Below, one piece after another: positions 6,254 to 43,662 of a DNA stretch of 48,468 bases; positions within the stretch are counted from its first letter, which is position 1; every line of letters begins with the position of its first letter. The DNA lies in NCBI GenBank assembly GCA_019240755.1, contig JAFAXS010000005.1, positions 1 to 48,468 of the forward strand, in the 5' to 3' direction. Source of the DNA: Vulcanimicrobiota bacterium (GTDB lineage: Bacteria > Vulcanimicrobiota > Vulcanimicrobiia > Vulcanimicrobiales > Vulcanimicrobiaceae). The notes beneath the pieces are model-generated. The model was not told the origin of the DNA. It saw only the letters and a program-made list of their open reading frames with translations, and did no database searches. A program made the position numbers and the translations under genes.

Positions 6254-7461
6254 GCGGCTGCGTTCTCCTCGATGCGCTCGAATACCGTTGCAATGCCCTG
6301 CCCCACGCCGATGCACATCGTCGCCAGCGCAAAGCGGCCCCGCCGCCGGCGCAGTTCGTGCAGCAGCGTCGTCGCGATGCGCGCGCCGCTTGCGCCCAGA
6401 GGGTGACCGAGTGCGATCGCTCCACCGTTCACGTTGGTGCGCTGCCCGTCAAATCCCAGATCGCGCATGCACGCGATTGCCTGCGATGCGAACGCCTCGT
6501 TGATTTCGATCAAGTCGAGCTGCCCCACGTCGATTGTCGCATTCGCGAGCGCCTTGCGCACTGCGCGGATTGGTCCCAAGCCCATCAGGTCCGGCGCCAC
6601 GCCAGCCGACGCGCACGCCACGATCCGCGCCATGGGAGAGAGTCCCATTCGCCGCGCGACCGCCGCCTCGCAGAGCAGCAACGCGGCCGAACCGTCGTTG
6701 ATGCCGGACGAGTTTCCGGCGGTTACAGTGCCGTCGCTCGCAAATGCCGGAGCGAGCCTGCCCAAGCGCTCCATCGTCGTGTCGGGACGCGGATGCTCGT
6801 CGCGCGTGACCACTCGCCGCTCCTTCTCGCCTACAATCTCCACGGGCACTATCTCATCCGCGAACGCGCCCCGCGCCGTGGCGTCGTTGCACTTCATTTG
6901 AGACTCGTACGCAAAGCGGTCTTGCTCGGCCCGGTCGATCGCGTAGCGTTGAGCGACGCGCTCGGCGGTCTCGCCAAGAGATATCGTATACTCGGTGGGC
7001 ATTCTGGGATTGACCATGCGCCAGCCAAGCACGGTATCGAAGATGCGCTGGTGCCGGGCGAACGCCGCTTCCGCTTTGGGCAACACGTACGGCGCCCGCG
7101 TCATGGACTCGACGCCGCCGGCGACCATTACGTCGCCTTCGCCGAATGCGATGGCCTGCGCCGCCGAATTGATCGCCTGAAGGCTCGAACCGCAGAGCCG
7201 GTTCACCGTCACGCCCGGAACTTCAACCGGCCAGCCGGCGAGCAACACCGCCATGCGGGCGACGTTGCGATTATCTTCGCCGCTCTGATTCGCCGCGCCC
7301 AAATAGACGTCGTCTATCGCGTCCGGCGCAATCGCCGTTCGATCGACGAGCGCACGGAGCGTCACCGCCGCCAAGTCGTCGGGGCGCACTCCGGCGAGCA
7401 CTCCGCCGACGCGGCCGATCGGCGTTCGTACGGCGTCGATCACCCAAACGTCACGCTTCAT
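6250..7461 (-). CDS. Acetyl-CoA acyltransferase (PaaJ/PcaF-like thiolase)
   Basis: A 403-residue thiolase II-fold enzyme. The acyl-accepting cysteine is C90 in VNRLCGSSLQA, and the second pair is H353 in GHPLGASG and C383 in MCIGVGQG, with NEAF at 321-324. Length and motifs match degradative thiolases such as beta-ketoadipyl-CoA thiolase. The start at 7461 (MKRDVWVIDAVRTP) gives the standard N-terminus and overlaps the preceding dehydrogenase gene by 11 bases. It would cleave a 3-oxoacyl-CoA to acetyl-CoA and a shortened acyl-CoA, the step after the neighbouring 3-hydroxyacyl-CoA dehydrogenase. Degradation of 3-oxoadipyl-CoA is the favoured guess given the BoxB/PaaX genes. Confidence 0.93.
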   Translation of the reverse strand: MKRDVWVIDAVRTPIGRVGGVLAGVRPDDLAAVTLRALVDRTAIAPDAIDDVYLGAANQSGEDNRNVARMAVLLAGWPVEVPGVTVNRLCGSSLQAINSAAQAIAFGEGDVMVAGGVESMTRAPYVLPKAEAAFARHQRIFDTVLGWRMVNPRMPTEYTISLGETAERVAQRYAIDRAEQDRFAYESQMKCNDATARGAFADEIVPVEIVGEKERRVVTRDEHPRPDTTMERLGRLAPAFASDGTVTAGNSSGINDGSAALLLCEAAVARRMGLSPMARIVACASAGVAPDLMGLGPIRAVRKALANATIDVGQLDLIEINEAFASQAIACMRDLGFDGQRTNVNGGAIALGHPLGASGARIATTLLHELRRRRGRFALATMCIGVGQGIATVFERIEENAAA

Positions 7462-9052
7462 GCGCGGTTCCCGCGGACGCGGCTTCCTCTTCGACCTCTT
7501 CGACGTCGAGCAGCCACAGCGAACGATGCGGCGCAAAGACGCTTCCCTCGTCGTCTGCGAGGCGCCGCAAGATCCGGCCAATTCGCGCGCCGCGGATCGC
7601 TCGCCCCCAGGCAATGGGGCCGAGCGGATAGTTCGCGCCGAATCGCATGGCGGTATCGATGTCTTCCGGTGAAGCGACGCCGTCGTGCACGGCAATCATC
7701 GCTTCGTTGACGATCGATCCGACGGTGCGGCCCAAGAACAGCGCCGGCGCGTCCTCCACCAAGATGCTCGCCTTACCTAGCACCGCAAAAAATTCTTGCG
7801 CAAGCTCCAGCGTCTCATCGCTCGTAGACTCTAAATCGACGATCTCGACGATCCGTTGCGCGTGCAACGAATCTAGGATCCCGAATCCAAGCAATCGCTC
7901 CGGGTGACGCAGCCGACGCGCGCAGGCGCTCACGTCGGTAGCGTACGCGTCGGCGATCAACAGCGTTTCGGGACCGAAGGCCGCATCGAGCCGCTCGAGA
8001 ACGCCGCTGCGATCGGCGACGCCGTCGCCGGTGTCGATGAGGATGGTCGTCTGGGCCGATAGATCGGGCAGCATGTCGTCATTTTCGACGCGCTGGACGT
8101 GCGCGTACCGTGCGCCCACCGCTTCGCCGAGCTCCGCGGCGAGGTCGCCGAGCCCCACGACCGCGACGTTCTCCTCCGCGAGCGCAGAATCGGACGTGGG
8201 CGCAACGCCGGGCTCGAAACGGGATGGGACACCCTCGTCATAGCGATAGAAGCCGACGCCGCTCTTGCGTCCGAGCTCGCCGCGCGCGATCATCTCCTCT
8301 TGCAAAGCGACCGGAGCGAAGCGTGGCGATCCAGTACGCTCGTACAACGACTGCGTCGTCGCCAGATTGACGTCGAGGCCGATCAAGTCCATTAACTCGA
8401 ACGGTCCCATGCGAAAGCCCGCGCCGCGCGCCAATGCGTCGAGCTCTTCGACGGTGGCAAGGCCGCGACACAGAGCGCGGAGGCTCTGAAGATAGAATGG
8501 CCGGGCAACGCGATTGACGATGAATCCCGGCGTATCTGCCGTTACGACCGGCGTCTTTCCCAGTGCGTGAACGATCGCCAGACCTCGCTCGACCGCGTCC
8601 GGGCTCGACTGCGCTCCGCGCACGACCTCGACGAGTCGCATTCGCGGCGGCGGGTTGAAGAAATGCAGCCCAATCACGCGCTGCGGATTCGATACGCTGT
8701 CCGCGAGCTCGTCGACGCTCAGCGACGAGGTGTTCGTTGCAATCAGCGCATCCGGCGCAAGCGCGCGAGCGAGCGCGGCGAAGACCTGGCGCTTCATCTC
8801 GAAGCGCTCCGGCACCGCCTCAATCGCCACCGTCGCTTCCGAACCGCTCGGAATTTCTGCGTTCCAGCGGATTCGTGCCGCGAGGCCCTCGACGCCGCAT
8901 CGCGCTTCCTCGCGCTCGAAGTATTGTGCGGCGCGTTCGCGCGCGTCGACTTGCGGCTCGACGAGTTCTACCTCGTAACCCCCGGTTGCGGCCACGGCGG
9001 CGATGCCGGCACCCATCGTTCCGCCGCCTACCACCAGTAAGGTTTCTGGCAT
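7451..9052 (-). CDS. 3-hydroxyacyl-CoA dehydrogenase, PaaH-like
   Basis: A 533-residue NAD-dependent dehydrogenase. The Rossmann fold starts at the very N-terminus with VGGGTMGAGIA (7-17), and the catalytic histidine is H130 in GLHFFNPPPR. A 3HCDH C-terminal domain follows (about 180-280), then a second, more divergent Rossmann/3HCDH pair (about 300-510) in which the HFFNP motif is replaced by GFGILDS. This two-unit layout is like PaaH of phenylacetate degradation but longer. The ATG at 9052 follows the AAGG-like stretch on the minus strand. It is the first gene of a coupled operon with the thiolase and aldehyde dehydrogenase. The reaction would be 3-hydroxyadipyl-CoA-type oxidation; exact chain length is unknown. 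Confidence 0.9.
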   Translation of the reverse strand: MPETLLVVGGGTMGAGIAAVAATGGYEVELVEPQVDARERAAQYFEREEARCGVEGLAARIRWNAEIPSGSEATVAIEAVPERFEMKRQVFAALARALAPDALIATNTSSLSVDELADSVSNPQRVIGLHFFNPPPRMRLVEVVRGAQSSPDAVERGLAIVHALGKTPVVTADTPGFIVNRVARPFYLQSLRALCRGLATVEELDALARGAGFRMGPFELMDLIGLDVNLATTQSLYERTGSPRFAPVALQEEMIARGELGRKSGVGFYRYDEGVPSRFEPGVAPTSDSALAEENVAVVGLGDLAAELGEAVGARYAHVQRVENDDMLPDLSAQTTILIDTGDGVADRSGVLERLDAAFGPETLLIADAYATDVSACARRLRHPERLLGFGILDSLHAQRIVEIVDLESTSDETLELAQEFFAVLGKASILVEDAPALFLGRTVGSIVNEAMIAVHDGVASPEDIDTAMRFGANYPLGPIAWGRAIRGARIGRILRRLADDEGSVFAPHRSLWLLDVEEVEEEAASAGTAHEA

Positions 9053-29611: not shown

Positions 29612-30817
29612 GTGAAGCTGCGGAAGCTTCTCGCGGGCGTGGGCGCCGGCGTCGCCGCGGGGTATGCCGCCATGCGCGCGATCGAAGCGATCGGCGAGTG
29701 GCGCAGTCCCGCACCGTCACGTCCACGTGATGCCAAAGCATATGCGCGCGCTCGCCGCGCACTCGAAGTCGCAGCAACCGTTCGCGGCCTCGTGGCGACG
29801 CCGGCGTTTGCCTATGGGCCGGCGGGTGCGGCACTCGACCGCGCGAGCGTCCGCGTTCCGGCGGCATTGCGTCCGGCACTCTTCGGCGGCGTGTTTTCGT
29901 TGGCCGTTGCGCTCGCCGACCTGCCGGTCGCGTTCGTGGAAGAGCACGCGCTGGAACGCCGCTACGGACTGACGGATCAAACGCGCTCGAGCTGGCTGAG
30001 CGATTACGCGAAGAGCACGCTGGTGGCGACGGTGATGGCGAGCATCGTCGCGACGCTGTTCGGCGCGGCGGTGCGGCGAACACCGCGGTGCTGGCCGTGG
30101 CTCGCGAGCGCGGGAGCGTTTCCTCTTTTCGTGTTCGGCAATCTGATCGTGCCGATTTATATCATGCCCTTATTCAACGCGTTTACGCCCGTGGAAGGGC
30201 CGCTCGAGAAACGCCTGCGCGCCTTGGCCGGCCGGTACGGCGTCGGCGATGCGGCGATTCTGCGCATGGACATGAGCCGTCAGACGCGCAAGGCCAACGC
30301 GTTCGTCACGGGCATCGGCGCGACGCACCGCATCGTGGTGGGCGACACGCTGGCCGACGCATTTCCGGAGGACGAAACGGAGTTCGTCGTCGCGCACGAG
30401 CTCGGCCACTATATCCACCGCGACACGTGGCGGCTGATCGGACTCGGGGAGGTGCTCGCCACGACGCTCTTTTTGGTGGCGAACGGCGCCGTTTCGCGCA
30501 ACGATCGCGACGCGCTGCGGGACCGTCCGCTCCTGCTATTGCGGATTTACGCCGTCATGCTGCTCGCATCGCAAGCGCTGCGGCCGCTGCTCTTTGCATT
30601 CTCGCGCTCGCGCGAGTGGGCGGCGGACCGCTTCGCCGTCGCGGCGACGCAGAATGCGGCCGCCGGCGCCGCCGCATTTGCGCGGCTGCGCGACCAGAAC
30701 TTGGCCGACGACGATCCTCCGCGGTGGTACGAAACGCTCTTTGGCTCACATCCGTCGCTGCGCGCGCGCATCGCGGCGCTGGAGCACGCCGGAACGCCGC
30801 TACGGCAGGATCGCTGA
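29612..30817 (+). CDS. M48-family membrane zinc protease (Ste24/HtpX-like)
   Basis: A 401-residue integral membrane protease. The zinc motif is H262-E-L-G-H266 in VVAHELGHYIH and the third ligand is the glutamate in SREWAADRFA about 60 residues later. Hydrophobic helices lie at about 92-110, 135-150, 165-190, and on either side of the HExxH region, as in CAAX-type Ste24 proteases. It probably degrades or trims membrane proteins. The GTG at 29612 directly follows the stop of DUF3175. The last 18 bases overlap the convergent folate gene. Confidence 0.88.
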   Translation: MKLRKLLAGVGAGVAAGYAAMRAIEAIGEWRSPAPSRPRDAKAYARARRALEVAATVRGLVATPAFAYGPAGAALDRASVRVPAALRPALFGGVFSLAVALADLPVAFVEEHALERRYGLTDQTRSSWLSDYAKSTLVATVMASIVATLFGAAVRRTPRCWPWLASAGAFPLFVFGNLIVPIYIMPLFNAFTPVEGPLEKRLRALAGRYGVGDAAILRMDMSRQTRKANAFVTGIGATHRIVVGDTLADAFPEDETEFVVAHELGHYIHRDTWRLIGLGEVLATTLFLVANGAVSRNDRDALRDRPLLLLRIYAVMLLASQALRPLLFAFSRSREWAADRFAVAATQNAAAGAAAFARLRDQNLADDDPPRWYETLFGSHPSLRARIAALEHAGTPLRQDR

Positions 30818-32245
30818 CGGGCGCGTGCGCAGCCACGTCGCGATGTCGGTCTTCGGCGTCACGTGCGATCCCGTCGCCAGCTCCGCGCGCAGTTCGCCGA
30901 AGAGTCCGAAGCCCTCGGCGAAGGCGTCGTGTTTGTGAATGGACTCCTCGTTGATTTGACTGGCGAAGACGAACGTCGAGTCGTCCAGGTCGGCGTAGAC
31001 GTCGAGCGCGCGCGCCAGAATGCCGCGCACCACGTCTTCGACGAAACGCGGGTTATGGTGCGCCTTGTTGACCACGAAAAACTCGTCGGGGCGCTTCAAC
31101 AGGTCGTACGTCTCGCTCGACATCGAGTTCTCGACGATTTCGACCAGATCTTCCGCGCGAATCGCCTCCGCATGGCGTTCGTCCGCGCCTAAGAGAATCA
31201 CGCCGCGGCCGCGCTGATTGTGCGTCGCGACGGGCAACGCATCGAGCGCGCGCGTCGCGTCCTTCTCGCTGAAGCCCGCCTCGCCCAACTGGCGCATCGC
31301 GTGTTCCCGCACCATCGCCTGCGCGCAGGGACAAGCCGTCATGCCTTCCGCTTCGACGCCGACGATCCGGCGCGTGCCGCCGGCGTCCGCGTGCGCGATC
31401 CCGACGAGCGTGTAGGTCTCTTCGCCACGCCTGCCGCTCACCGGCGTCCAGCGCTCCAGACCGAAATCCGCGCGTAGCCGCACGTCGGCGCAGACGGCGC
31501 GTTGGCTGCGAACGATTTCGGTCGCGATCGCCTCCGCCAGCCGTTCGACGCGCGCTGGCTGCGCATCGCGCGACAGCACGTCGAGCGTTGCCTCTTCCAG
31601 GATTTCGGCGAATCGCGACATGTGGACGCCCGCCTTATCCGGCGCCAAGTCGGCGACCATCGCGAACTCACCGTTGTACGCGCGCGGTTTTCCGTCGATC
31701 TCCAGGTGCACGACGCGCCGCACGCCGGAGACGCCGGCCCGTTCCAACGAGAGACGCACCTCGGGTTCTTCCGACTGCCGATCGGTGTCGAAGCGCAATG
31801 CGCGCTCGCGCCGGCGAACGCTGCCGTTGCTCGGCGGCAGGGCGAGCTCGGGAGCAATTTCCGCGAGTGGTGCGGCGTTGTAAGGCCGCACGTCGAGGTG
31901 CGGCTCGACGATGGTCCCGTCGACCGCCAACAAATCCACGTCGATGGGTCGCGGCGCGAGCCGCTTCGTTCCCCGCGCACGCCCGACGGCCAACTCAACC
32001 TCGCGCGCGTAGCGCTTGAACTCGTCCGGCGTGAGCTCGGTACGCAAAGCAGCGGCCACGTTCAAGTACGCCGGGCCTTCCGCGCCGTGGGCGGCCTCGG
32101 ACTCATAAAACGATGAAACGGCCACGATCGTCGCCCGCGCGCGCAACCGCTGCAGCGCCGCCAGAATATTGCTCTGGCGATCGCCGAGGTTCGAACCGAT
32201 CCCGATGTGGAGGTGGTGCACGCACGCATGCTTCGCGGTGCCCAC
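30800..32245 (-). CDS. Bifunctional FolK-FolE2: HPPK fused to type IB GTP cyclohydrolase
   Basis: A 481-residue two-enzyme fusion. Residues 11 to about 150 are 6-hydroxymethyl-7,8-dihydropterin pyrophosphokinase (GIGSNLGDR at 15-23, FYESEA near 47, PRPIDVDLL at 98-106). Residues about 160-481 are a FolE2/MptA-type GTP cyclohydrolase IB (GVHMSRF at 206-212, ACPCAQ at 304-309, THNQRG near 340, HHNPRFVEDV near 395). One protein would thus carry the first ring-opening step and the pyrophosphorylation step of folate synthesis. FolB and FolP are not adjacent. The GTG at 32245 is uncertain: another GTG shortly downstream (before HHLHIGIG) is also reasonable. Confidence 0.9.
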   Translation of the reverse strand: MGTAKHACVHHLHIGIGSNLGDRQSNILAALQRLRARATIVAVSSFYESEAAHGAEGPAYLNVAAALRTELTPDEFKRYAREVELAVGRARGTKRLAPRPIDVDLLAVDGTIVEPHLDVRPYNAAPLAEIAPELALPPSNGSVRRRERALRFDTDRQSEEPEVRLSLERAGVSGVRRVVHLEIDGKPRAYNGEFAMVADLAPDKAGVHMSRFAEILEEATLDVLSRDAQPARVERLAEAIATEIVRSQRAVCADVRLRADFGLERWTPVSGRRGEETYTLVGIAHADAGGTRRIVGVEAEGMTACPCAQAMVREHAMRQLGEAGFSEKDATRALDALPVATHNQRGRGVILLGADERHAEAIRAEDLVEIVENSMSSETYDLLKRPDEFFVVNKAHHNPRFVEDVVRGILARALDVYADLDDSTFVFASQINEESIHKHDAFAEGFGLFGELRAELATGSHVTPKTDIATWLRTRPSAILP

Positions 32246-33411: not shown

Positions 33412-33894
33412 ATGATGGACACACAGACGGCGACCTTTGCGGCCGGTTGTTTCTGGGGAGTCGAAGCGGCGTTTCGGCAAGTGCCCGGCGTCATCGAGGT
33501 GGTCTCGGGGTATACCGGCGGCCATGCCGAGCATCCGACGTACCGGCAAGTCTGCGGCCACTCGACCGGGCACGCCGAAGCCGTGCAAGTAACCTTCGAT
33601 CCGCAACGGGTCGGCTACGATCGGTTACTCGAGGAGTTCTGGAAAATTCACGATCCGACGCAGCTCAACCGGCAAGGACCCGACGTCGGCGACCAATACC
33701 GGTCGGCGATCTTCACGCACGACGATGAACAGCACGCCGCCGCCGTTGCATCGCGCGACCGCGAACAGGCTCGGCACGCGCGTCCGATCGTAACGCAGAT
33801 CGCTCCGGCGACGAAATTTTGGCCCGCGGAAGAATATCACCAGCGTTACTTTGAGAAGCATGGGATGGTGCAATGTCACGTACCGGTTCGATGA
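33412..33894 (+). CDS. msrA: Peptide methionine-S-sulfoxide reductase A
   Basis: A 160-residue MsrA with the active site GCFWG (catalytic C13) and the conserved GYTGG and STGHAEAV motifs. A cysteine near the C-terminus (VQCHVPVR) could be the resolving residue. There is no signal peptide, so it acts in the cytoplasm on methionine-S-sulfoxide. The ATG at 33412 overlaps a second ATG. The 3' end overlaps msrB, so the two stereospecific reductases are coupled. Confidence 0.93.
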
Positions 33895-34364
33895 CGCGGC
33901 GACGCTTCGCGGCGACTCTGGCGGGAGCGGCGTGCCTCGTTGGCGCGTCGCGTCGAGTCTTCGCCGCCGAGCATTTTGAAGTGACGCACTCGGACGCCCA
34001 GTGGCGCGAGCTGCTCGGTCCGGAGCGTTACGAGATTCTGCGCCAAGGCGGCACCGAGCCCGCCTTCTCCAGCCCGCTGCTGAACGAGAAACGCGCCGGA
34101 ACGTACCGCTGCGCGGGCTGCGAACTCGCGCTCTTCTCCTCGCGGGTCAAGTACGACAGCGGCGACGGCTGGCCGTCCTTCTGGGACGTGCTGCCGCGCA
34201 CGACGGCCACGCAGAACGACTACGCGCTGCTCGAGCAGCGCACCGAGGTGCACTGCCGGCGATGCGGCGGCCATCTCGGTCACATCTTCGATGACGGGCC
34301 GCCGCCGACGCACCTGCGTTACTGCATCGACGGCTTGGCGTTACGCTTCGTACCCGCGAGCTGA
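33873..34364 (+). CDS. msrB: Exported peptide methionine-R-sulfoxide reductase B
   Basis: A 163-residue MsrB. Zinc cysteines are C80-A-G-C83 and C128-R-R-C131, and the catalytic C151 is in [11 protein letters not shown]. Residues 7-33 form a Tat-like signal: twin arginines in TRRRF, then a hydrophobic core ending in FAA. It therefore repairs proteins outside the cytoplasm, while MsrA in front has no signal. An ATG at 33891 overlapping the msrA stop (ATGA) is an equally likely start and leaves the signal intact; 33873 is kept as a longer option with GGGATGG upstream. The 3' end overlaps the DAHP synthase gene by 24 bases. Confidence 0.9.
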
Positions 34365-35270
34365 CACGACGCCGTCGGTCCGATCCGCTCGTTGCGGCAG
34401 CCGCCGACCCGCGAACTCAGCGACCGGCATGAGCCGCCGCATTAGCCGATCGAACTGCGCGCAATCGAGGGATTGTGCGCCGTCGGAGAGCGCGTTCGGC
34501 GGATCGGGATGGACCTCGATAAGCAGCCCATGGGCTCCCGCCGCCACGCTTGCGATCGCGACCGGCGGCACCAGTCGCGCGATTCCCATCGCGTGGGACG
34601 GATCGACGATCACCGGAAGGTGAGTCAGCTCTTCCAACAGCGGAACGACGGCGATGTCGAGCAAATTGCGAGTCGCAACGTCGAACGAGCGCACGCCCCG
34701 CTCGCACAGCACGACGTTGTCGTTGCCGCGGAGCACGATATATTCGGCGGCCAACAGCCATTCTTGCACCGTCGCGGAGAGCCCGCGCTTCAGTAGCACC
34801 GGCATGTCGCTGTCGCCGGCTTCTCGCAGGAGCGGAAAGTTTTGCATGCTGCGCGTACCGATCTGCAGCATGTCGGCGTAGCTTGCGACCTTCTCGACGT
34901 CGCGCGGGTCCAGCACTTCGGTAACGACGCCTAGGCCGAATGCATCGGCGGCCTCGCGCAGCATCTTCAGCGCCTCTTCTCCGAGGCCCTGAAACGAATA
35001 GGGCGACGTTCGGGGCTTGTACGCTCCGCCGCGCAAAACGTTTGCGCCCGCTTGGGCCACGCCCTCAGCCGCGCGGTGAAGCTGTTCGTGCGATTCAACG
35101 CCGCACGGCCCCGCACAGATCGCCAACTCATCGCCGCCGAAGCTCGCGCCGGTTCGCAGCCGTACGACGGTGCGGTCGGGGCGCGCATCCCGGCGGACGA
35201 GCCGATACGATTGCGGTACGTTCACCCCTCGCTCCACCATCGTCGCTTCGACGGATGATTCGCCCTTCAT
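34341..35270 (-). CDS. aroF: 3-deoxy-7-phosphoheptulonate (DAHP) synthase, short AroF type
   Basis: A 309-residue type I-beta DAHP synthase of the KDO8P-like clade, making DAHP from PEP and erythrose-4-phosphate as entry to the shikimate pathway. Motifs: AGPCGVES with metal cysteine C56, VLRGGAYKPRTSPY at 78-91, and DPSHAMG near the end. The N-terminal ferredoxin-like or ACT regulatory domain is absent, suggesting loss of aromatic amino-acid feedback. The ATG at 35270 is likely, but an ATG at 35240 is an alternative. It is divergent from the ketoacyl synthase gene with 64 bases between and could supply shikimate for the neighbouring cluster. Confidence 0.9.
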   Translation of the reverse strand: MKGESSVEATMVERGVNVPQSYRLVRRDARPDRTVVRLRTGASFGGDELAICAGPCGVESHEQLHRAAEGVAQAGANVLRGGAYKPRTSPYSFQGLGEEALKMLREAADAFGLGVVTEVLDPRDVEKVASYADMLQIGTRSMQNFPLLREAGDSDMPVLLKRGLSATVQEWLLAAEYIVLRGNDNVVLCERGVRSFDVATRNLLDIAVVPLLEELTHLPVIVDPSHAMGIARLVPPVAIASVAAGAHGLLIEVHPDPPNALSDGAQSLDCAQFDRLMRRLMPVAEFAGRRLPQRADRTDGVVSARGYEA

Positions 35271-35334
35271 GCCGCCCGTCAGCATCCAAACGCATGCAGG
35301 CCGCCGGCATCGCGCTGTCTGAAAAGCATTCCCG

Positions 35335-36543
35335 ATGGAGCACGTTGCCGTTACCGGAATGGGTGTGGTGTCGCCGCTGGGCAGCAGCATCGACGCCTTC
35401 TGGCGCGGTCTCATGAACGGCACGTCGGCCATTGGACCAATGCACAACCGCGAGCGCGTCTCCGGTAACGGCTTCTGGGCGGCGGTGCCCGATGATTTCG
35501 TGGGCGGCGCGCAGCTGCCGGCAGGCGCCCTGCGCAACACCGACCGCTTTACGCAGTACGCGATGGTGGCCGCAAGCGCCGCGCTGGCGCAGGCGTCGCT
35601 GGATCCGCCGGCGGAGCGCACGGCCGTAATCGTCGGAAATACGATGGGTGGATTTCCGCTCGTCGCCGAGACGCAGAGCCGCTACCTCGACGGCGGCGGA
35701 CATGTCGTGACGCCGAAGCTCATGGCATTGGTGATACCCAATATGGCGAACGCTTTGATCGCCATGCACTGGAAGCTGCACGGACCGTCGCTCGCGATCA
35801 GCACCGCGTGCGCGTCGTCGCTCGATGCGATCGGCCTGGCATCCGGAATGATCGAGCGCGGCACGATCGATGCGGCGATCGCCGGCGGAAGCGAGACGCT
35901 GCTGAGTCCGATCGTGTACGAAAGCCTCGTGCGCGCGGGCGCGCTCTCGCGAAATCCGGATCCGGCGCGCGCCTCGCGGCCCTTCGACCTCGATCGCGAC
36001 GGATTCGTCATGGGCGACGGCGCGGCGATCCTGGTGCTCGAGCGCGCCGAACGTGCGGCGCAGCGCGGCGCAACGATTCTGGCGCGCATCCGCGGGTACG
36101 GGTCGCTCGCCGATGCGTATCACATTACGTCGCCGGATCCGTCGGGCGAGTACGAAGTGCGCGCGATGCGCGCCGCTTTAGACGATGCGGGCGCGGCGGC
36201 GCAGCGTTCCGTCGTCTACGCCCATGCGACGGGCACGATCGTCGGCGACGCCGCCGAAGCGCGCGCGATCGACGCGCTCTACGCCGAACAACCTCCGATC
36301 GTCACGTCGATCAAAGGCCATCTCGGTCACAGCATGGCGAGCTCGGGCGCGATGTGCGCGATCGCAGCCATCGTCGGCATGCACGAGAGCCGCGTTCCGC
36401 CGACAATCGGCACGCAACGGATCGATCCCGCGGCGCGCTTCGACTTGGTGATGTCGCAAGCACGCGAACACGCGTATTCGTCGTTTCAAGTCAACGCCTT
36501 CGGTTTCGGCGGCCAGAATGCGTCGTTAGTTGTGACACGCTGA
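35335..36543 (+). CDS. 3-ketoacyl-ACP synthase (FabF/KAS II-like)
   Basis: A 402-residue condensing enzyme. The triad residues are C159 (STACASS), H297 (AHATGT) and H332 (KGHLGHS), with K327. Sequence and size are of the FabF type, which extends acyl chains on ACP with malonyl-ACP. As first gene of an operon with CoA-ligase and reductase genes, not in a fab locus, it may be dedicated to an unusual acyl chain. No chain-length factor or other KS is nearby, so it is not a type II PKS pair. There are 63 bases before the next gene. The start MEHVAVTGMGVVSPLG is standard. Confidence 0.92.
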   Translation: MEHVAVTGMGVVSPLGSSIDAFWRGLMNGTSAIGPMHNRERVSGNGFWAAVPDDFVGGAQLPAGALRNTDRFTQYAMVAASAALAQASLDPPAERTAVIVGNTMGGFPLVAETQSRYLDGGGHVVTPKLMALVIPNMANALIAMHWKLHGPSLAISTACASSLDAIGLASGMIERGTIDAAIAGGSETLLSPIVYESLVRAGALSRNPDPARASRPFDLDRDGFVMGDGAAILVLERAERAAQRGATILARIRGYGSLADAYHITSPDPSGEYEVRAMRAALDDAGAAAQRSVVYAHATGTIVGDAAEARAIDALYAEQPPIVTSIKGHLGHSMASSGAMCAIAAIVGMHESRVPPTIGTQRIDPAARFDLVMSQAREHAYSSFQVNAFGFGGQNASLVVTR

Positions 36544-36606: not shown

Positions 36607-39600
36607 ATGAATCTGCTGGTCAAAGGAACGAGCGGACCGCTGGACGGTCGGGTCGAGGTTCCGAGCTCGAAGTATCACGCGCATCGCGCGTTGATTCTGG
36701 CGTCGCTCGCGTCGGGAACGAGCCGGATCGTCGGACTCTCCGATGCGCGTCACGTCAAGTACACGATCGACGTTCTGCGCGCGCTCGGAACGATGATCGA
36801 AGTTGCCGGCAACGACTTCCTGGTGACGGGCGGCCCATATCGCGTCAAACGAAGAGTCGTCTCCGTCGGCAGTTCCGGGTCAACGCTCTACTTCATGATC
36901 GGACTCGCGTCGCTCGCGGACGCGCCGATCACGATGACGGCGCAGAAGTACTTCCGGCGCCGTCCCGTCGGACCGCTGCTGCAGGCGCTCGCGGCGATGG
37001 GCGTCGAGTTCGAATCGTCCCACGGCTGCCCGCCGATCGGCATCACTCCACGTAAGCCGCGCGGCGGACGGATCGTCATTCCCGGAACGCTGTCGCAGTG
37101 GATCTCGGGTCTGTTGCTGCTTGCGCCGTTCGCGGACCAGCGAACCGTCATCGAAGTGGAAGGCGAGCTCAACGAGCGTCCCTACATCGATCTTACGATC
37201 CGCATGATGGGCGCGGTGGGCTTGCAGGTGGAGATCGGTCGCGACTACCGCAGCTTCACGATCGAACCCGATCAGCGGGCACATCCAGCGACGATGGAAC
37301 TTCCCGCCGACATCGGCTCGGCGGGCTTTGGGTTGGGCGTCACGGCACTCCATCCGTCGAACGTGCTGTTCTCGGGCCTGCAAACGTTGCCCGGCCAAAC
37401 CGCGGACCACCCCGAAGGCGCGTTCTTAGAGATCGTGCGCGAGATGGGGCTGCCGATGGCGTACGACGCGCAGGCGCGGGCCGTGCGAGTCAACCATGGC
37501 GGCATCGAGCTGCGGGGCGTGCGCGTGGACTGCCGCGATATTCCCGACATGCTGCCGATTCTGGCAACGCTCGGCACGTTCGCGCGCGGCCGGACGATCC
37601 TCGAAAACATTCGGCATGTTCGGCTCAAGGAATCGGATCGCGTCGCCGCGATGCTGCAACTCAATCGAATGGGCGGACGGCTGAACATCGAGGACGATCG
37701 CCTGACGATCGACGGCGTCGAGCAGTTGCGCGGCGCAAAGGTCTCTTCATTTAACGACCATCGTATCCTGATGTCGCTCGCCGTCGCCGGCTCGCGCGCG
37801 GAGGGGCAGACGACGCTCACCTATCCGAATGCCTATCGCATCTCGTATCCCCGTTTCTTAGAGGCGATGCGGGCCATCGGCGTGCCGATGTCGGTCGTCG
37901 ATCGGCCCGCAAACGACCGACGCACCACGTCGAAGGCACCGCCCCCGCTGAAGCCAAACGCCGCGGCCACGACGACGCTTATCGACCAGCTGCGTAAGCA
38001 GGCCGCAGAGAGGCCCGACGAGCTTGCGGTGGTCGAGGCGGCCGAGGATCACGATCGCGTTCTCTCCTGGGGCGCGCTGATGGAACGCGTGGACCGTACG
38101 GCGATGCTGCTGCTCCAACTCGGCGTGGCGCCGGGCGAATCCGTCGCGTTTCAGTTGCCCAACTCGCTCGACTTCGTCGTCGTCGCGTTGGCGGCGCTGC
38201 GCATCGGCGCCATCTGTTGCCCGCTGATGCCGATCTTCCGCGAGCGCGAAGTGCTGTTCTGTCTGCGGCGGTCGCGCGCGCGGGTGCTGTTCGTGCCGGA
38301 CCAAGTGCGCGGGCGGCACTTCGCGGGCGAAGTGGCGGCGCTGCTGGCGGAGACGTCGGTCTTCAGCGGCGACCTGCCGTTGCGACTCGAGCACGTGATC
38401 GTCGCGGCGTCGGGCCGCAAAGTGCATCCGCTGCCGGCACCGGATAATGCCGCGGGCGTTGCGTGGCTGCACTTCGCGGATGTCTTGACACAGATGGAGC
38501 CCGATGCTGCGGCGCTCGACCGGCGCGCCGCCGCGCCGGCGGCGCTCGCGCAGCTGCTCTTCACCTCCGGCACGTCGGGTGAGCCGAAGGGCGTGCTGCA
38601 TCGGAACGACGTTCTGATGCGCGCGGCGGCGATGGAAATCGAGCACCTCGGCCTCAACGCGCAAGACCGGGTCTTTATTCCGTCGCCGCTCGCGCACCAG
38701 ACCGGATTCCTCTACGGCATGTGGCTTGCGATCGGCCTGGGCGTCGCGCAAATCGTTCAGCCGGCGTGGAGCGCGGCACGCGCGCTGATGGCGCTCAACG
38801 AATGGGACGGGACGTTCGTCCAGGCGGCGACGCCGTTCTTAGCCGATATGGTGAAAGCGATCGAAGGAGGTGCGCGTCCACCGGCGGCGCTGCGGATCTT
38901 CGTTGCGACCGGGGCCGCCGTACCGCGCGGACTCGCGGAACGCGCAACTCGAATTCTCGGGGCCGCCGTCTGCGGCGCGTGGGGCACGACCGAGTCGTGC
39001 CTTGGATCCTTGGCAGCGCCCAACGACGAGCCCGCAAAGGTCTGGGGCACCGACGGCCGCGCGCTGCGCGGCATCGGGCTGCGTATCCGCGACGACGACG
39101 GAAGCACGCTGCCGCCGGGCGAGGAAGGCAACTTCGAGGTAAAGTCGCCGACGATGTTCGAGGGCTACGTCGATCATCCGGAATGGACGGCGGCTGCCTA
39201 CACGGACGATGGGTGGTTTCGCACGGGCGATCTTGGCGTGATCGACGAGTCGGGCTACGTGCGCATCACCGGGCGCGTCCGCGACGTCATCAACCGCGGC
39301 GGCGAAAAAGTGCCGGTGGCAGAGGTCGAGCAGCTGCTGGCGGATCATCCTGCGGTCGCGGAGATCGCGATCGTTGCGATGCCGGATCCCCGCTTAGGCG
39401 AGCGCGCGTGCGCCTTCGCCGTGCTGCGCGAGCGCGCCGCATTCGATTTTGCGCGCATGCAACACTACCTCGACGCGTGTCAGGTCGCGAAGCACTACTG
39501 GCCGGAGCGGCTCGAGATCGTTGCGGAGCTTCCGCGCACGCCCTCGGGAAAAATTCAAAAATACGTCCTGCGGCAGCGCGCGAAAGGGCTGCGCCCGCAG

Positions 39601-39627
39601 GAGCGCGCGAAGGAGCCGGTCGCATGA
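36607..39627 (+). CDS. EPSP synthase-like domain fused to acyl-CoA ligase
   Basis: A 1006-residue fusion. Residues 1-430 are an EPSP synthase fold (AroA). Active-site comparison with E. coli AroA: K22, R27, Q164, D314, K341-E342, R345 and N383-D-H-R386 are kept, but S23 is Y23, N94 is S89, T97 is S92, and the PEP-binding K411 becomes I412. Those changes fit a different reaction rather than ordinary EPSP synthesis. A Pro-rich linker (435-452) joins an adenylate-forming ligase (455-1000): FTSGTSGEPKG at 652-662, WFRTGDLG, GRVRDVINRGGEKV and the final PSGK lysine. The pair could convert shikimate or a derivative into an acyl-CoA. It overlaps the next gene by ATGA. Confidence 0.92.
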   Translation: MNLLVKGTSGPLDGRVEVPSSKYHAHRALILASLASGTSRIVGLSDARHVKYTIDVLRALGTMIEVAGNDFLVTGGPYRVKRRVVSVGSSGSTLYFMIGLASLADAPITMTAQKYFRRRPVGPLLQALAAMGVEFESSHGCPPIGITPRKPRGGRIVIPGTLSQWISGLLLLAPFADQRTVIEVEGELNERPYIDLTIRMMGAVGLQVEIGRDYRSFTIEPDQRAHPATMELPADIGSAGFGLGVTALHPSNVLFSGLQTLPGQTADHPEGAFLEIVREMGLPMAYDAQARAVRVNHGGIELRGVRVDCRDIPDMLPILATLGTFARGRTILENIRHVRLKESDRVAAMLQLNRMGGRLNIEDDRLTIDGVEQLRGAKVSSFNDHRILMSLAVAGSRAEGQTTLTYPNAYRISYPRFLEAMRAIGVPMSVVDRPANDRRTTSKAPPPLKPNAAATTTLIDQLRKQAAERPDELAVVEAAEDHDRVLSWGALMERVDRTAMLLLQLGVAPGESVAFQLPNSLDFVVVALAALRIGAICCPLMPIFREREVLFCLRRSRARVLFVPDQVRGRHFAGEVAALLAETSVFSGDLPLRLEHVIVAASGRKVHPLPAPDNAAGVAWLHFADVLTQMEPDAAALDRRAAAPAALAQLLFTSGTSGEPKGVLHRNDVLMRAAAMEIEHLGLNAQDRVFIPSPLAHQTGFLYGMWLAIGLGVAQIVQPAWSAARALMALNEWDGTFVQAATPFLADMVKAIEGGARPPAALRIFVATGAAVPRGLAERATRILGAAVCGAWGTTESCLGSLAAPNDEPAKVWGTDGRALRGIGLRIRDDDGSTLPPGEEGNFEVKSPTMFEGYVDHPEWTAAAYTDDGWFRTGDLGVIDESGYVRITGRVRDVINRGGEKVPVAEVEQLLADHPAVAEIAIVAMPDPRLGERACAFAVLRERAAFDFARMQHYLDACQVAKHYWPERLEIVAELPRTPSGKIQKYVLRQRAKGLRPQERAKEPVA

Positions 39628-40799
39628 AGCAGCTCGACCGTCCGGCAAGCTTCGATGCGGCGTCGTTCGCGCGGCTCAAGGACGAAGTCGCCGCCTACGT
39701 CGCCGGTCCCGCGGAAGAATGGTCACGGCGCATCGAGGCAGAGCGGCGCGTTCCGCCCGAACTGTGGGAGGAGTTGCGCGAACGCGGGTACCTCGCGCTG
39801 GCGGCGCCGGTCGAGTACGGCGGCCGCGGCATTCCGTTCTCGCGCTATTTGGAGCTGATCGAACTTTTTTCGATGTCCCACGCCTCGATTCGCATGATCG
39901 TACACGTCGTCAACGGCACGTGGCGCTCGATGGACCGTTTCGCGACGCCGGAACAGCGCGCGAAGTATATCCTGCCGTCGATCCGCGGCGAGATCAAGGT
40001 GGCCTTCACGCTGACCGAGCCGACGGCCGGAACGGGCGCCGACTTGCGCTGCAGCGTCGGCCGCGAGGGCGACACGTATTATCTCACCGGCGAGAAGCAC
40101 CTGATCACGTTCGGCACGATCTGCGACTACTGGCTGCTGTTTGCGCGCGTCGCTGGAACGCGCGGCGCCGACGGTACCGTCGCGCTGCTCGTCGACCGCC
40201 GCGTGCCCGGCGCCACCGTCACCGCGATGGACGAATCGATGGGCGTGCGCGGAACTGACCACGCGCACCTGCGCTTCGAACGAGCGCCCGTTCCGGTCGC
40301 GAATCGCATCGGCGATGAAGGTCAGGGCCTCGAGGTCGCGCTCGGCGGCTTCTTGACGCCGAGCCGCATCTCGGTCGCGATGAGCTGCGTGGGGCTCGCG
40401 CGCCGCGCACACGAGCTGGCGATCGCATACGCGACCGAACGGGAAACTTTCGGCAAGAAGCTCATCGAGCGCCAAGCGATCCGCTTCATGATCGCCGAGA
40501 ACGCCACCGACATCGAGGCCGCGCGTCAACTCGTCTTGCATGCGGCGCACGAGTGGGAGGTCGAGAGCGCCGGCGCGGCGCTGCTCTCCTCGATGTCGAA
40601 GCTGCAGGCCGTGGAGATGCTCACGCGCGTTACCGATAAGGCGCTGCAGATCCACGGCGGCATCGGGTTTTGGCAGCCCAATGCGATCGAGCGCGTCTAC
40701 CGCGACGCGCGAGCGCAACGCTTTGAGGAAGGAACCAACGAAATTCAAAAGACCGTGATCGCCCGCGAGTTGCTCTCCCTCCGCGGAAGCGAGTCGTGA
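39624..40799 (+). CDS. Acyl-CoA dehydrogenase
   Basis: A 391-residue FAD acyl-CoA dehydrogenase. The FAD and substrate motif [13 protein letters not shown] is at 128-140, and the catalytic base is E369 in [11 protein letters not shown]. Length is normal. ATG overlaps the stop of the fusion gene (ATGA) and its own stop is overlapped by the SDR (GTGA). In the proposed pathway it would introduce or shift a ring double bond on a cyclohexene/cyclohexadiene carboxyl-CoA, as acyl-CoA dehydrogenases in cyclohexanecarboxyl-CoA pathways are thought to do. General fatty acyl-CoA oxidation is the alternative. Confidence 0.93.
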
Positions 40800-41602
40800 A
40801 CCGCCGCTTCGACGGAAAAGTCGCGCTCATCACCGGGAGCTCGCGCGGCATCGGGCGGGCGCTGGCGCTGACATTGGCGCGCGAAGGCGCGGACATCGTC
40901 GTCAACTATCAGCGCAATGCCGACCTGGCGGAGAGCGCGGTACGCGAAATTACCGCGCTCGGCCCGCGAGCGATTGCGGCACAGGCGAACGTCGAGGAAC
41001 CGGCGGAGATCGACCGGCTGTTCGAGCGCGTTGGCTCCGAGTTTGGACGACTGGACTGTTTCGTTTCGAACGCCGCGGCGAGCTCGTTTAAGAAAATCGT
41101 AGATCTCAAGGCCCATAATCTCGACCGTTCGTTCGACCTCAACGTGCGCGCGTTCGTGCTCGGCGCGCAGCGTGCCGTTAAACTGATGCGCAACGGCGGA
41201 CGCATCGCAGTGCTCTCCAGTTACGGCAGCATCCGCGCGTATCCGACCTACGCGAACCTGGGCTCGAACAAGGCCGCAATCGAGGCCTGGGTGCGCTACA
41301 TGGCGGTCGAGTTCGCTCCCTACGGCGTGAACGTCAACGCCGTGAACGGCGGCTTGATCGATACCGAATCGTGCGCGTACTTCTACGAGCGCGTCGCGGG
41401 CATGGCGCCGATCGACTCGGTGCTCGCCAAGATTCCAAAGCGCCGCATGGGAACGCCGCAAGAGGTCGCCGATACGATCGCATTCTTGCTGGCGCCGGAA
41501 TCCGAGTACATCACCGGGCAGACGTTCTGCGTTGACGGCGGCCTCAGCGTGATCGCTCCTCCTTTTTACTCCGACACGACGCCGCCGCTCGCGCTCTCGT
41601 AA
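40796..41602 (+). CDS. SDR enoyl reductase, FabL/ChcA-like
   Basis: A 268-residue short-chain dehydrogenase. The cofactor motif is TGSSRGIG (13-20) and NAAA near 92-95. The catalytic pair is Y152-x6-K159 (YANLGSNK) rather than the usual Y-x3-K of ketoreductases. That wider spacing is typical of enoyl reductases, and the surrounding pattern [10 protein letters not shown] and [13 protein letters not shown] closely follows FabL. It would therefore reduce a C=C bond next to a thioester with NAD(P)H. In this operon the substrate may be a cyclohexene carboxyl-CoA, the role of ChcA. The GTG at 40796 overlaps the preceding stop (GTGA). Confidence 0.88.
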
Positions 41603-41613
41603 CGGCCACGCCG

Positions 41614-43662
41614 ATGTTCCCGTACGCGCTCCGCGAGGGCTCGATCGGCACGCTGCTGCTGCGCAATCGCATCATCATGGGCTCGATGCACCTCGGCGTC
41701 GAGCGCGACGCGGCGACACTCGCCGAGTTCTACGCCGTTCGGGCGCGCGGCGGCGTCGGCCTGATCGTCACGGGCGGCTCCGCGGTCAACCGCAGCGGCG
41801 CGGGCGGCGTCAACTACAGCCTGGTCAACGACGACGGCTGGGCGCCAAGCTTGCGCGCCGCCGCAGAGGCCGTGCACGCCGCCGGCGGCCGCATCGCGCT
41901 ACAACTCTTCCACGCGGGACGCTACGCACTCAAGGAATCGTACGGGCTGCAACCCGTCGCGCCGTCTGCGATTCCGTCGCGCTTCTCGCCTGACGCGCCG
42001 CGAGCGCTGAGCGACGACGAGATTCGGGAAACGATCGCCGACTTCGCGCGCGGCGCGTTGCGCGCGCGCGAGCTCGGCTACGACGCGGTCGAGGTGATGG
42101 CGTCCGAAGGCTATCTGCTCAACCAGTTTCTTTCGCCGCTGACCAATCGGCGCGACGACGCGTGGGGCGGCGACCTCGATCGGCGGATGAACGCCGCTCG
42201 CGCCGTGTTGCGCGCAATCCGCGACCTTGCCGGCAGCGACTTTCCCGTGATCTTTCGCATCTCGGGCGCCGACTTGATGACCGGCTCTACCACGCAGGCA
42301 GAGACGCTGCAGTTTGCGCGCACGCTTGCGGCCGACGGCGTCGACGCGCTCAACGTCGGCATCGGCTGGCACGAATCGTCGATCCCGACCGTGCAGCAGG
42401 TAGTGCCCGGCGGAGTGTGGATCCCGTATGCCGCCGCTATAAAGCGCGCGGTGACGGCGTTGCCCGTCATTGCGAGCAATCGCATCAACAGCATCGCCGC
42501 GGCCGAGGCCGCCCTGGCCGAAGGAAGCGCCGATTTTATCTCGATGGCGCGGCCGTTTCTCGCGGACGCGGCGATCGTGGCGAAAGCCACGGAAGGGCGA
42601 TCGGCCGATGTCGACACGTGCATCGCGTGCAATCAGGCCTGCATCGACCGCTCCCTGATCGATGCGCCGGTCTCGTGCATGGTGAATCCGCGAGCCGCGC
42701 GCGAGCTCGCGTTCCCGGAGCCGGACCTTGCGAGCAAAAATGGCGCTCGCTATGCAGTCGTCGGCGGCGGACCGGCGGGCATGGAAGCGGCGCGTGCCCT
42801 CGCGGCACTCGGCGGCCGCGTCGTGCTCTTCGAGGCCGACGACGAGCTCGGCGGCCAGTTTCGGATGGCGCGCAAGATTCCGGGGAAACGCGATTTCGGC
42901 GAGACGATCCGCTACTTCAGCAATGAGTTGCCGCGATTGGGCGTCGAGGTGCGATTGAACCGGCGCGTCGCGGCCAGCGACGAGTTGCGCGAGTTCGACG
43001 CGGTCGTTCTGGCAACCGGCGTGCTCCCGAGGCGGGCGCTCCTTGCGGGGGACGACCTCCCGCACGTCGTTTCGTATGCCGACCTGCTGTTGCGCGACGC
43101 CGCGGTCGGCGAGCGCATTGCCGTCGTCGGCGCCGGCGGCATCGGGGTGGACGTCGCGCACTACTTGAGCTTCGGCGAGGCGAACGCCGACGACACCACG
43201 CGGTTTCTCTACGAACAGGGTCTGGCCGCGCCGCTCGACGGCGAGTTGCTGGTCGTCGGGCGCAAGCGGGTGCGATTGCTACGGCGCGGAGCGCCAATCG
43301 GCGAGCGCATCGGCAAGACGACGCGCTGGGCGATCCTACGATCGCTGCGCGCGGCAGGCGTCGAAATGTACCCGAATATCGCTTACGAGCGCATCGTTCC
43401 GGAAGGCCTCGTGATCCGCACCGCCGACGGCGCGTTGCAGACGATTTTCGCGGATACGGTCGTGATCGCCGCTGGACAGGAGCGCAACGATGCGCTCCTG
43501 TCTGCGGTCGCCGGGTTACGCCGCCCCTATCGAATCGCCGGCGGCGCGCGCGACGCGAGCGAACTCAACGCCGTGCGCGCGTTCGACGAAGGGCTGCGCG
43601 CCGCTCACGAGCTGACGCGCGAGATGGGCTCAGCCGCCCACGTGCGTGCGAAAGCCCACTGA
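41614..43662 (+). CDS. 2,4-dienoyl-CoA reductase-like FMN/FAD/4Fe-4S enzyme
   Basis: A 682-residue FadH-type protein. The N-terminal TIM barrel (1-330) has the catalytic Y167 (SEGYLLNQFLSP) and H253 (GIGWHE), each one residue off the positions I recall in E. coli FadH. The 4Fe-4S cysteines C336, C339, C343 and C355 also match by spacing. A FAD/NADPH domain follows (VVGGGPAGMEAARAL near 376). It reduces 2,4-dienoyl-CoA to enoyl-CoA. As last gene of the coupled operon it may reduce a cyclohexadiene carboxyl-CoA. The start ATG 41614 is 11 bases after the SDR stop. The 3' end overlaps a lipoprotein gene by 33 bases. Confidence 0.92.
   Translation: MFPYALREGSIGTLLLRNRIIMGSMHLGVERDAATLAEFYAVRARGGVGLIVTGGSAVNRSGAGGVNYSLVNDDGWAPSLRAAAEAVHAAGGRIALQLFHAGRYALKESYGLQPVAPSAIPSRFSPDAPRALSDDEIRETIADFARGALRARELGYDAVEVMASEGYLLNQFLSPLTNRRDDAWGGDLDRRMNAARAVLRAIRDLAGSDFPVIFRISGADLMTGSTTQAETLQFARTLAADGVDALNVGIGWHESSIPTVQQVVPGGVWIPYAAAIKRAVTALPVIASNRINSIAAAEAALAEGSADFISMARPFLADAAIVAKATEGRSADVDTCIACNQACIDRSLIDAPVSCMVNPRAARELAFPEPDLASKNGARYAVVGGGPAGMEAARALAALGGRVVLFEADDELGGQFRMARKIPGKRDFGETIRYFSNELPRLGVEVRLNRRVAASDELREFDAVVLATGVLPRRALLAGDDLPHVVSYADLLLRDAAVGERIAVVGAGGIGVDVAHYLSFGEANADDTTRFLYEQGLAAPLDGELLVVGRKRVRLLRRGAPIGERIGKTTRWAILRSLRAAGVEMYPNIAYERIVPEGLVIRTADGALQTIFADTVVIAAGQERNDALLSAVAGLRRPYRIAGGARDASELNAVRAFDEGLRAAHELTREMGSAAHVRAKAH

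What the first reader, a model, noticed from the sequence alone, without database searches (positions are those of the whole stretch)
36607..39627. EPSP synthase fold fused to an acyl-CoA ligase, with altered PEP and shikimate-phosphate residues
In the first 430 residues the AroA framework (K22, R27, D314, K341-E342, N383-D-H-R386) is intact, but S23, N94, T97 and the PEP-contact K411 of E. coli AroA are replaced by Y23, S89, S92 and I412. Loss of these contacts suggests the domain no longer makes EPSP but uses the same carbinol/elimination chemistry on a shikimate-like ring. Fusion to a ligase implies the product acid is activated at once to a CoA ester.
Basis: partly seen in the sequence, partly recalled or inferred. 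Interest (0 to 1): 0.75.

Follow-up and report, generated by a model that had tools for sequence, protein, structure and literature searches.

The report
Cyclohexane-ring starter enzyme made from shikimate
A two-part enzyme heads a gene set of the known type that turns shikimate, a building block of aromatic amino acids, into a saturated six-carbon ring used to start fatty acids or antibiotics; here it is a near-constant trait of one genus of a mostly uncultured bacterial phylum, Eremiobacterota.

Summary
The fusion is real: an AroA (EPSP synthase) fold, residues ~9-421, joined to an AMP-forming acyl-CoA ligase, ~460-990, in one 1006-aa ORF. It heads a tightly coupled operon with an acyl-CoA dehydrogenase, a ChcA/FabL-like SDR and a 2,4-dienoyl-CoA-reductase-type flavoenzyme, preceded by a FabF-like ketosynthase. 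The four cassette genes recur at about 50-65% identity in eight Streptomyces loci beside the AHBA-pathway genes and NRPS expected of ansatrienin clusters, whose cyclohexanecarboxylate unit is made from shikimate. The best reading is a cyclohexanecarboxyl-CoA (CHC-CoA) cassette, probably priming omega-cyclohexyl fatty acids. The genome has a separate canonical aroA, aroK and aroC. It was wrong about the PEP site: position 411 is K in only 14 of 29 ordinary AroAs, and the other PEP-site residues are invariant. The informative changes are S23Y, D49H, R100Y, S197E and S169L, which suggest loss of the 3-phosphate pocket and action on unphosphorylated shikimate. This is a new member of a known kind; the exact role of the AroA-like domain, with or without PEP, is untested.

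The parts
35335..36543 (+). FabF-like beta-ketoacyl-ACP synthase (KS), 402 aa; probable dedicated condensing enzyme for the ring starter (inference)
   Evidence: PF00109/PF02801; fabF TIGR03150 367.6 bits, below its 493.75 cut-off; conserved upstream of the fusion in Eremiobacterota; a second KS, 39% identical, lies at C131
36607..37896 (+). AroA-like domain (residues 1-430), shikimate-handling half, altered 3-phosphate pocket
37897..39627 (+). Linker plus AMP-forming acyl-CoA ligase domain (residues ~460-990); P-loop TSGTSGEPKG at 653 and catalytic-lysine motif PRTPSGKIQK at 976 intact
   Evidence: best NCBIfam TIGR03208 cyclohexanecarboxylate-CoA ligase 459 bits, cut-off 792; 41% identical to ligases annotated aliA; motifs
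39624..40799 (+). Acyl-CoA dehydrogenase, 391 aa, start overlaps the fusion stop (ATGA); catalytic-Glu motif FEEGTNEI present
40796..41602 (+). SDR, FabL-like enoyl reductase, candidate ChcA (1-cyclohexenylcarbonyl-CoA reductase) equivalent; overlaps upstream gene by 4 bp
   Evidence: NF005975 FabL 263.9 bits, cut-off 328; conserved in cassette
41614..43662 (+). OYE/2,4-dienoyl-CoA reductase-type flavoenzyme, 682 aa, with 4Fe-4S motif CxxCx3Cx11C at 336-355

Best explanation
The fusion is the entry enzyme of a cyclohexanecarboxyl-CoA (CHC-CoA) biosynthetic cassette. Its AroA-like half takes free shikimate, not shikimate-3-phosphate, and removes the elements of water (in effect a 1,4-elimination of the 3-hydroxyl) to give a dihydroxycyclohexadiene carboxylate. 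Its ligase half makes the CoA thioester. The acyl-CoA dehydrogenase, SDR and dienoyl-CoA-reductase-type enzyme then strip the remaining hydroxyls and double bonds to give CHC-CoA. In this genus CHC-CoA most likely primes fatty-acid synthesis, with the adjacent KS, giving omega-cyclohexyl fatty acids. Shown here: domain make-up, operon and its conservation, homology to the cassette in ansatrienin-type clusters, presence of a separate canonical aroA, residue changes. Inferred: substrate, order of steps, product and its fate.
For: The gene order fusion/ACAD/SDR/OYE is conserved across Eremiobacterota and Streptomyces, and in most Solirubrobacterales. In eight Streptomyces loci, S. rishiriensis among them, it lies directly beside AHBA synthase-like, 'AHBA synthesis associated protein' (TIGR01454, 349 bits, over cut-off, in L034) and class II DAHP synthase genes, plus an NRPS. 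Ansatrienin combines AHBA, a D-alanine attached by an NRPS, and a cyclohexanecarboxylate labelled by shikimate (PMC8788734). A CHC-CoA gene cassette is known to supply CHC-CoA in S. avermitilis (PMC4581413), and CHC-CoA also primes omega-cyclohexyl fatty acids in Streptomyces (PMC4147253). The ligase is nearest to cyclohexanecarboxylate-CoA ligases. Canonical aroA, aroK and aroC lie elsewhere. S197E and S169L fall on residues that hold the 3-phosphate of S3P (role from memory of the E. coli structure); catalytic residues are invariant. No PKS or NRPS was found among the window genes scanned, which favours a lipid fate.
Against: No sequence of a biochemically proven CHC gene (S. collinus ansJKLM/chcA, or Alicyclobacillus) could be compared directly: I could not reach either in the collections and the single genome-contig scan did not return them. 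The domain passes NCBI's AroA equivalog cut-off (313 vs 287 bits). All PEP-site residues are kept, which plain dehydration would not obviously require. The one cultured Eremiobacterota isolate reports iso-branched, not cyclohexyl, major fatty acids (PMC9758169); whether its genome has the cassette was not established.
Confidence: 0.87

Rival explanations
1. Same pathway, different chemistry: the AroA-like half still uses PEP. It enolpyruvylates unphosphorylated shikimate and pyruvate then leaves, so dehydration is driven by PEP.
For: K22, R124, Q171, D313, E341, R344, D384, H385, R386 invariant in 45/45 members and in nearly all ordinary AroAs, while 3-phosphate contacts are lost.
Against: S197E puts an acid next to the C3 substituent, which equally suits direct loss of the 3-hydroxyl. 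No separate pyruvate-eliminating enzyme is seen in the cassette.
Confidence: 0.3
2. It is a genuine second EPSP synthase (perhaps feedback- or inhibitor-insensitive) fused to an unrelated ligase.
For: Passes TIGR01356 cut-off; catalytic framework and fold intact.
Against: Separate clade with a long stem; invariant S23Y, D49H, R100Y, S197E; tight linkage to a reductive acyl-CoA cassette; canonical aroA present.
Confidence: 0.04
3. The operon degrades alicyclic acids (an ali/bad-type catabolic set) rather than making them.
For: Ligase best matches AliA-type models and an acyl-CoA dehydrogenase is present.
Against: No BadK-type hydratase or BadI-type hydrolase in the operon, but an AroA homologue, an enoyl-reductase-like SDR and a dienoyl-CoA-reductase-type enzyme, which read as anabolic; homologues sit in antibiotic clusters.
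Confidence: 0.04
4. CHC-CoA (or a partly reduced ring acyl-CoA) feeds a secondary metabolite rather than membrane lipid in this genus.
For: In Streptomyces the cassette lies in antibiotic clusters.
Against: No PKS/NRPS among the window genes scanned; carried by 17 of 18 genus members, unlike a patchy metabolite cluster; extra FabF-like KS beside it.
Confidence: 0.15

Closest known systems
CHC-CoA biosynthetic cassette of ansatrienin-type Streptomyces clusters (S. rishiriensis L042, S. cinerochromogenes L034, S. seoulensis L037; the S. collinus ans genes from memory)
   Same: Same gene order: fused AroA-ligase, acyl-CoA dehydrogenase, SDR, OYE-type reductase; about 59% identity over the fusion, 51-65% for the others.
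   Different: No AHBA/NRPS genes here; a FabF-like KS precedes the cassette; about 40% divergence; apparently a genus-wide trait rather than a sporadic cluster.
Cassettes of Solirubrobacterales / Rubrobacteraceae (L040, L046-L059)
   Same: Same clade of AroA-like protein and same neighbours; the pair is 50-58% identical.
   Different: AroA-like protein and ligase are separate ORFs in all but one (L059); one subgroup lacks the SDR next to the cassette.
EPSP synthase (AroA), e.g. E. coli, PDB 1g6s
   Same: Fold and catalytic/PEP-site residues.
   Different: 27% identity; invariant S23Y, D49H, R100Y, S197E, S244G and S169->L; fused to a ligase; not the cell's only AroA.
AliA cyclohexanecarboxylate-CoA ligase (TIGR03208)
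   Same: Nearest curated model; 41% identity of the ligase domain to proteins annotated aliA.
   Different: Below the family cut-off; biosynthetic context; fused.

Membership tests
CHC-CoA biosynthetic cassette | AroA homologue, acyl-CoA ligase, acyl-CoA dehydrogenase, SDR enoyl reductase and dienoyl-CoA-reductase-type enzyme encoded together | tested here: met
CHC-CoA biosynthetic cassette | Homologous, syntenic cassette in clusters for a CHC-containing product | tested here: met
   Eight Streptomyces loci with AHBA genes and an NRPS; product itself inferred from gene content
CHC-CoA biosynthetic cassette | Direct homology to the S. collinus or Alicyclobacillus genes of proven function | not tested
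CHC-CoA biosynthetic cassette | Shikimate converted to CHC-CoA; omega-cyclohexyl lipids made | not testable with these tools
   needs expression and lipid analysis
EPSP synthase (AroA) | Fold and catalytic residues | tested here: met
   TIGR01356 313.3 vs 287.25
EPSP synthase (AroA) | S3P-binding serines (23, 169, 197) and invariant D49, R100 | tested here: not met
   Y, L, E, H, Y in all members
EPSP synthase (AroA) | Is the genome's only candidate for EPSP synthase | tested here: not met
   Canonical aroA at C164, aroK and aroC at C139
AliA cyclohexanecarboxylate-CoA ligase (TIGR03208) | Score over curated cut-off | tested here: not met
   459.4 vs 792.3

The most novel reading that the evidence does not exclude
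The AroA-like half is a PEP-using enzyme that enolpyruvylates unphosphorylated shikimate so that pyruvate can leave, a PEP-driven dehydration not described for the EPSP synthase/MurA superfamily to my knowledge. It would serve as the committed step to ring-tipped membrane lipids across a genus of uncultured Eremiobacterota.
Probability: 0.25. Interest if true: 0.65.

Novelty: new member of a known kind. Interest (0 to 1): 0.36.

Why it matters
It predicts omega-cyclohexyl fatty acids, known as major membrane lipids of acid- and heat-loving Alicyclobacillus (PMC10562698), as a trait of an Eremiobacterota genus; that is directly testable as a lipid biomarker. The residue pattern also gives a concrete, cheap test of how the CHC pathway begins: does an EPSP-synthase fold act on shikimate without its phosphate, and does it still need PEP? 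Finally, automated annotation is likely to call this protein AroA, because it passes the TIGR01356 cut-off.

Tried and rejected
K411I and T97S as evidence of lost PEP binding: rejected, because ordinary AroAs vary there. Second EPSP synthase: rejected on clade, residues and operon. Catabolic ali/bad set: rejected on gene content. Papers stating the role of the AroA homologue in CHC biosynthesis were searched for and none was found; two key papers are not in the library. No paper giving the EPSPS contact list by residue was found, so those roles rest on memory. Reaching Alicyclobacillus genomes through a plasmid record did not work. Plasmid collection: no record held most of the fusion. A first residue table included a few mis-framed rows and was redone with corrected reading frames.

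Full report
OBSERVATION. The ORF 36607-39627(+) encodes 1006 aa. Pfam places EPSP_synthase at 9-421, AMP-binding at 462-854 and AMP-binding_C at 906-982, all far above cut-offs. An AlphaFold model of residues 1-435 (pLDDT 93.5) matches E. coli EPSP synthase with S3P bound at TM 0.88. The ligase half keeps its P-loop and catalytic-lysine motifs. The same fusion occurs in 17 of 18 genomes of the genus, the window's own included; in one of them (G009) the ligase half is broken by frame breaks, and the single exception is a 68%-complete genome. It also occurs in two of four genomes of one genus in a sister family, in Streptomyces and in one Solirubrobacterales. It is not an assembly artefact.

SURROUNDINGS. 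The fusion is followed without gaps by an acyl-CoA dehydrogenase (39624, ATGA overlap), an SDR (40796, 4-bp overlap) and, after 11 bases, an OYE/2,4-dienoyl-CoA-reductase-type flavoenzyme with its 4Fe-4S cysteines (41614). A FabF-like ketosynthase ends 63 bp upstream. A second KS, only 39% identical, lies at C131, so this KS is extra. Nothing resembling a PKS or NRPS was found among the window genes scanned.

RELATIVES. One scan of 84,980 species gave 36 loci with the AroA-like/ligase pair: Eremiobacterota, Streptomyces, Solirubrobacterales, Rubrobacteraceae. The order AroA-ligase / ACAD / SDR / OYE is conserved where flanks are long enough, with these exceptions: no SDR beside the cassette in a Solirubrobacterales subgroup and in L050, no OYE match in L046 and L051, and a pair without further cassette genes in L038. 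It is rare outside the window's genus: 12 of 393 Streptomyces genomes and 3 of 199 in the class of Conexibacter. In the class of Conexibacter the AroA-like protein is a separate ORF in the three genomes found. In eight Streptomyces loci the cassette abuts an AHBA synthase-like aminotransferase, the AHBA-associated phosphatase (TIGR01454, over cut-off in L034), a class II DAHP synthase and an NRPS. That is the gene content expected for ansatrienin (mycotrienin): AHBA starter, D-alanine added by an NRPS, cyclohexanecarboxylate side chain labelled by [2-13C]shikimate (PMC8788734). S. rishiriensis as a mycotrienin producer is from memory. A CHC-CoA gene cassette is reported to replace CHC feeding for doramectin (PMC4581413). 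CHC-CoA also primes omega-cyclohexyl fatty acids in the asukamycin producer (PMC4147253). Several other Streptomyces copies lie near KS genes.

NOT THE CELL'S ONLY AroA. The genome has three PF00275 proteins: this one, a MurA-like protein (C86) and a canonical AroA (C164) (the MurA and AroA calls were read from the sequences and their alignment). It also has one aroC and one aroK, at C139. In a tree of 45 family members and 29 ordinary AroAs the family is one clade (100/100) on a stem of 1.17 changes per site, with the ordinary AroAs of the same genomes elsewhere (long branches make the exact root position unsure).

RESIDUES. Alignment of 45 members with 29 ordinary AroAs (E. coli numbering): K22, R27, R124, Q171, D313, K340, E341, D343, R344, D384, H385 and R386 are invariant in the family. 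Sites fixed differently in the family and in ordinary AroAs are S23Y, D49H, R100Y, S197E, S244G; N94 is S in all members; S169 is replaced by L if the one-residue gap is closed as in class II AroA. S23 binds the S3P carboxylate and S169/S170/S197 the 3-phosphate (established structure, from memory). The pattern says: phosphate pocket altered, PEP pocket kept.

MECHANISM. Best-supported: free shikimate enters the AroA-like half, loses water to a dihydroxycyclohexadiene carboxylate (the 1,4-elimination known from feeding work on this pathway, from memory), and the ligase half makes the CoA ester. The dehydrogenase, SDR and OYE enzymes complete the reduction to CHC-CoA. E190 (S197 position) would sit at C3 and could protonate the leaving hydroxyl (inference). 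The retained PEP pocket leaves a PEP-assisted route open. The order of ligation and elimination is not known. Unfused relatives suggest that fusion is helpful, not required. Fate: with no PKS seen, an extra KS beside it and near-universal presence in the genus, fatty-acid priming is the simplest reading. The cultured Vulcanimicrobium has iso-branched major acids (PMC9758169), but other sampled genera of the window's family lack the cassette, so this is not a contradiction.

VERDICT. A known kind of cassette in a phylum where I found no report of it, mis-callable as AroA.

Noticed in passing
window 30800-32245 (-): One 481-aa ORF joins HPPK (folK, residues 14-132) to GTP cyclohydrolase FolE2 (155-443), an unusual-looking folate-enzyme fusion.
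   Followed up: no
L038 9800-13015: S. albus NRRL B-1811 carries a second AroA-ligase fusion without ACAD, SDR or OYE, near P450s, a zinc-type reductase and a type II thioesterase (phoslactomycin-like?); its complete cassette lies on another contig (L115).
   Followed up: partly
L050, L053-L055, L057, L058: Solirubrobacterales cassettes (including Conexibacter sp. S30A1) lack the SDR between ACAD and OYE, so that reduction may be done by another enzyme.
   Followed up: no
L041 / G009:C263 and L082 (G161): Apparently broken copies: frame breaks in the ligase half of one Eremiobacterota genome, and a TGA inside the AroA-like half of one Streptomyces.
   Followed up: no
window 4760-9052 (-): Aldehyde dehydrogenase, thiolase and 3-hydroxyacyl-CoA dehydrogenase genes in a row, suggesting an aromatic-acid or fatty-acid degradation operon.
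   Followed up: no
window 33412-34364 and 34364-35335: msrA-msrB upstream of the KS is conserved in the genus, with a gap of about 1 to 3 kb of unassigned sequence before the KS.
   Followed up: no
window 36607-37911 (alignment A1): Family-invariant residues with no assigned role: H268-P269-E270, C309, W165, H49, Y95; candidates for substrate contacts.
   Followed up: no
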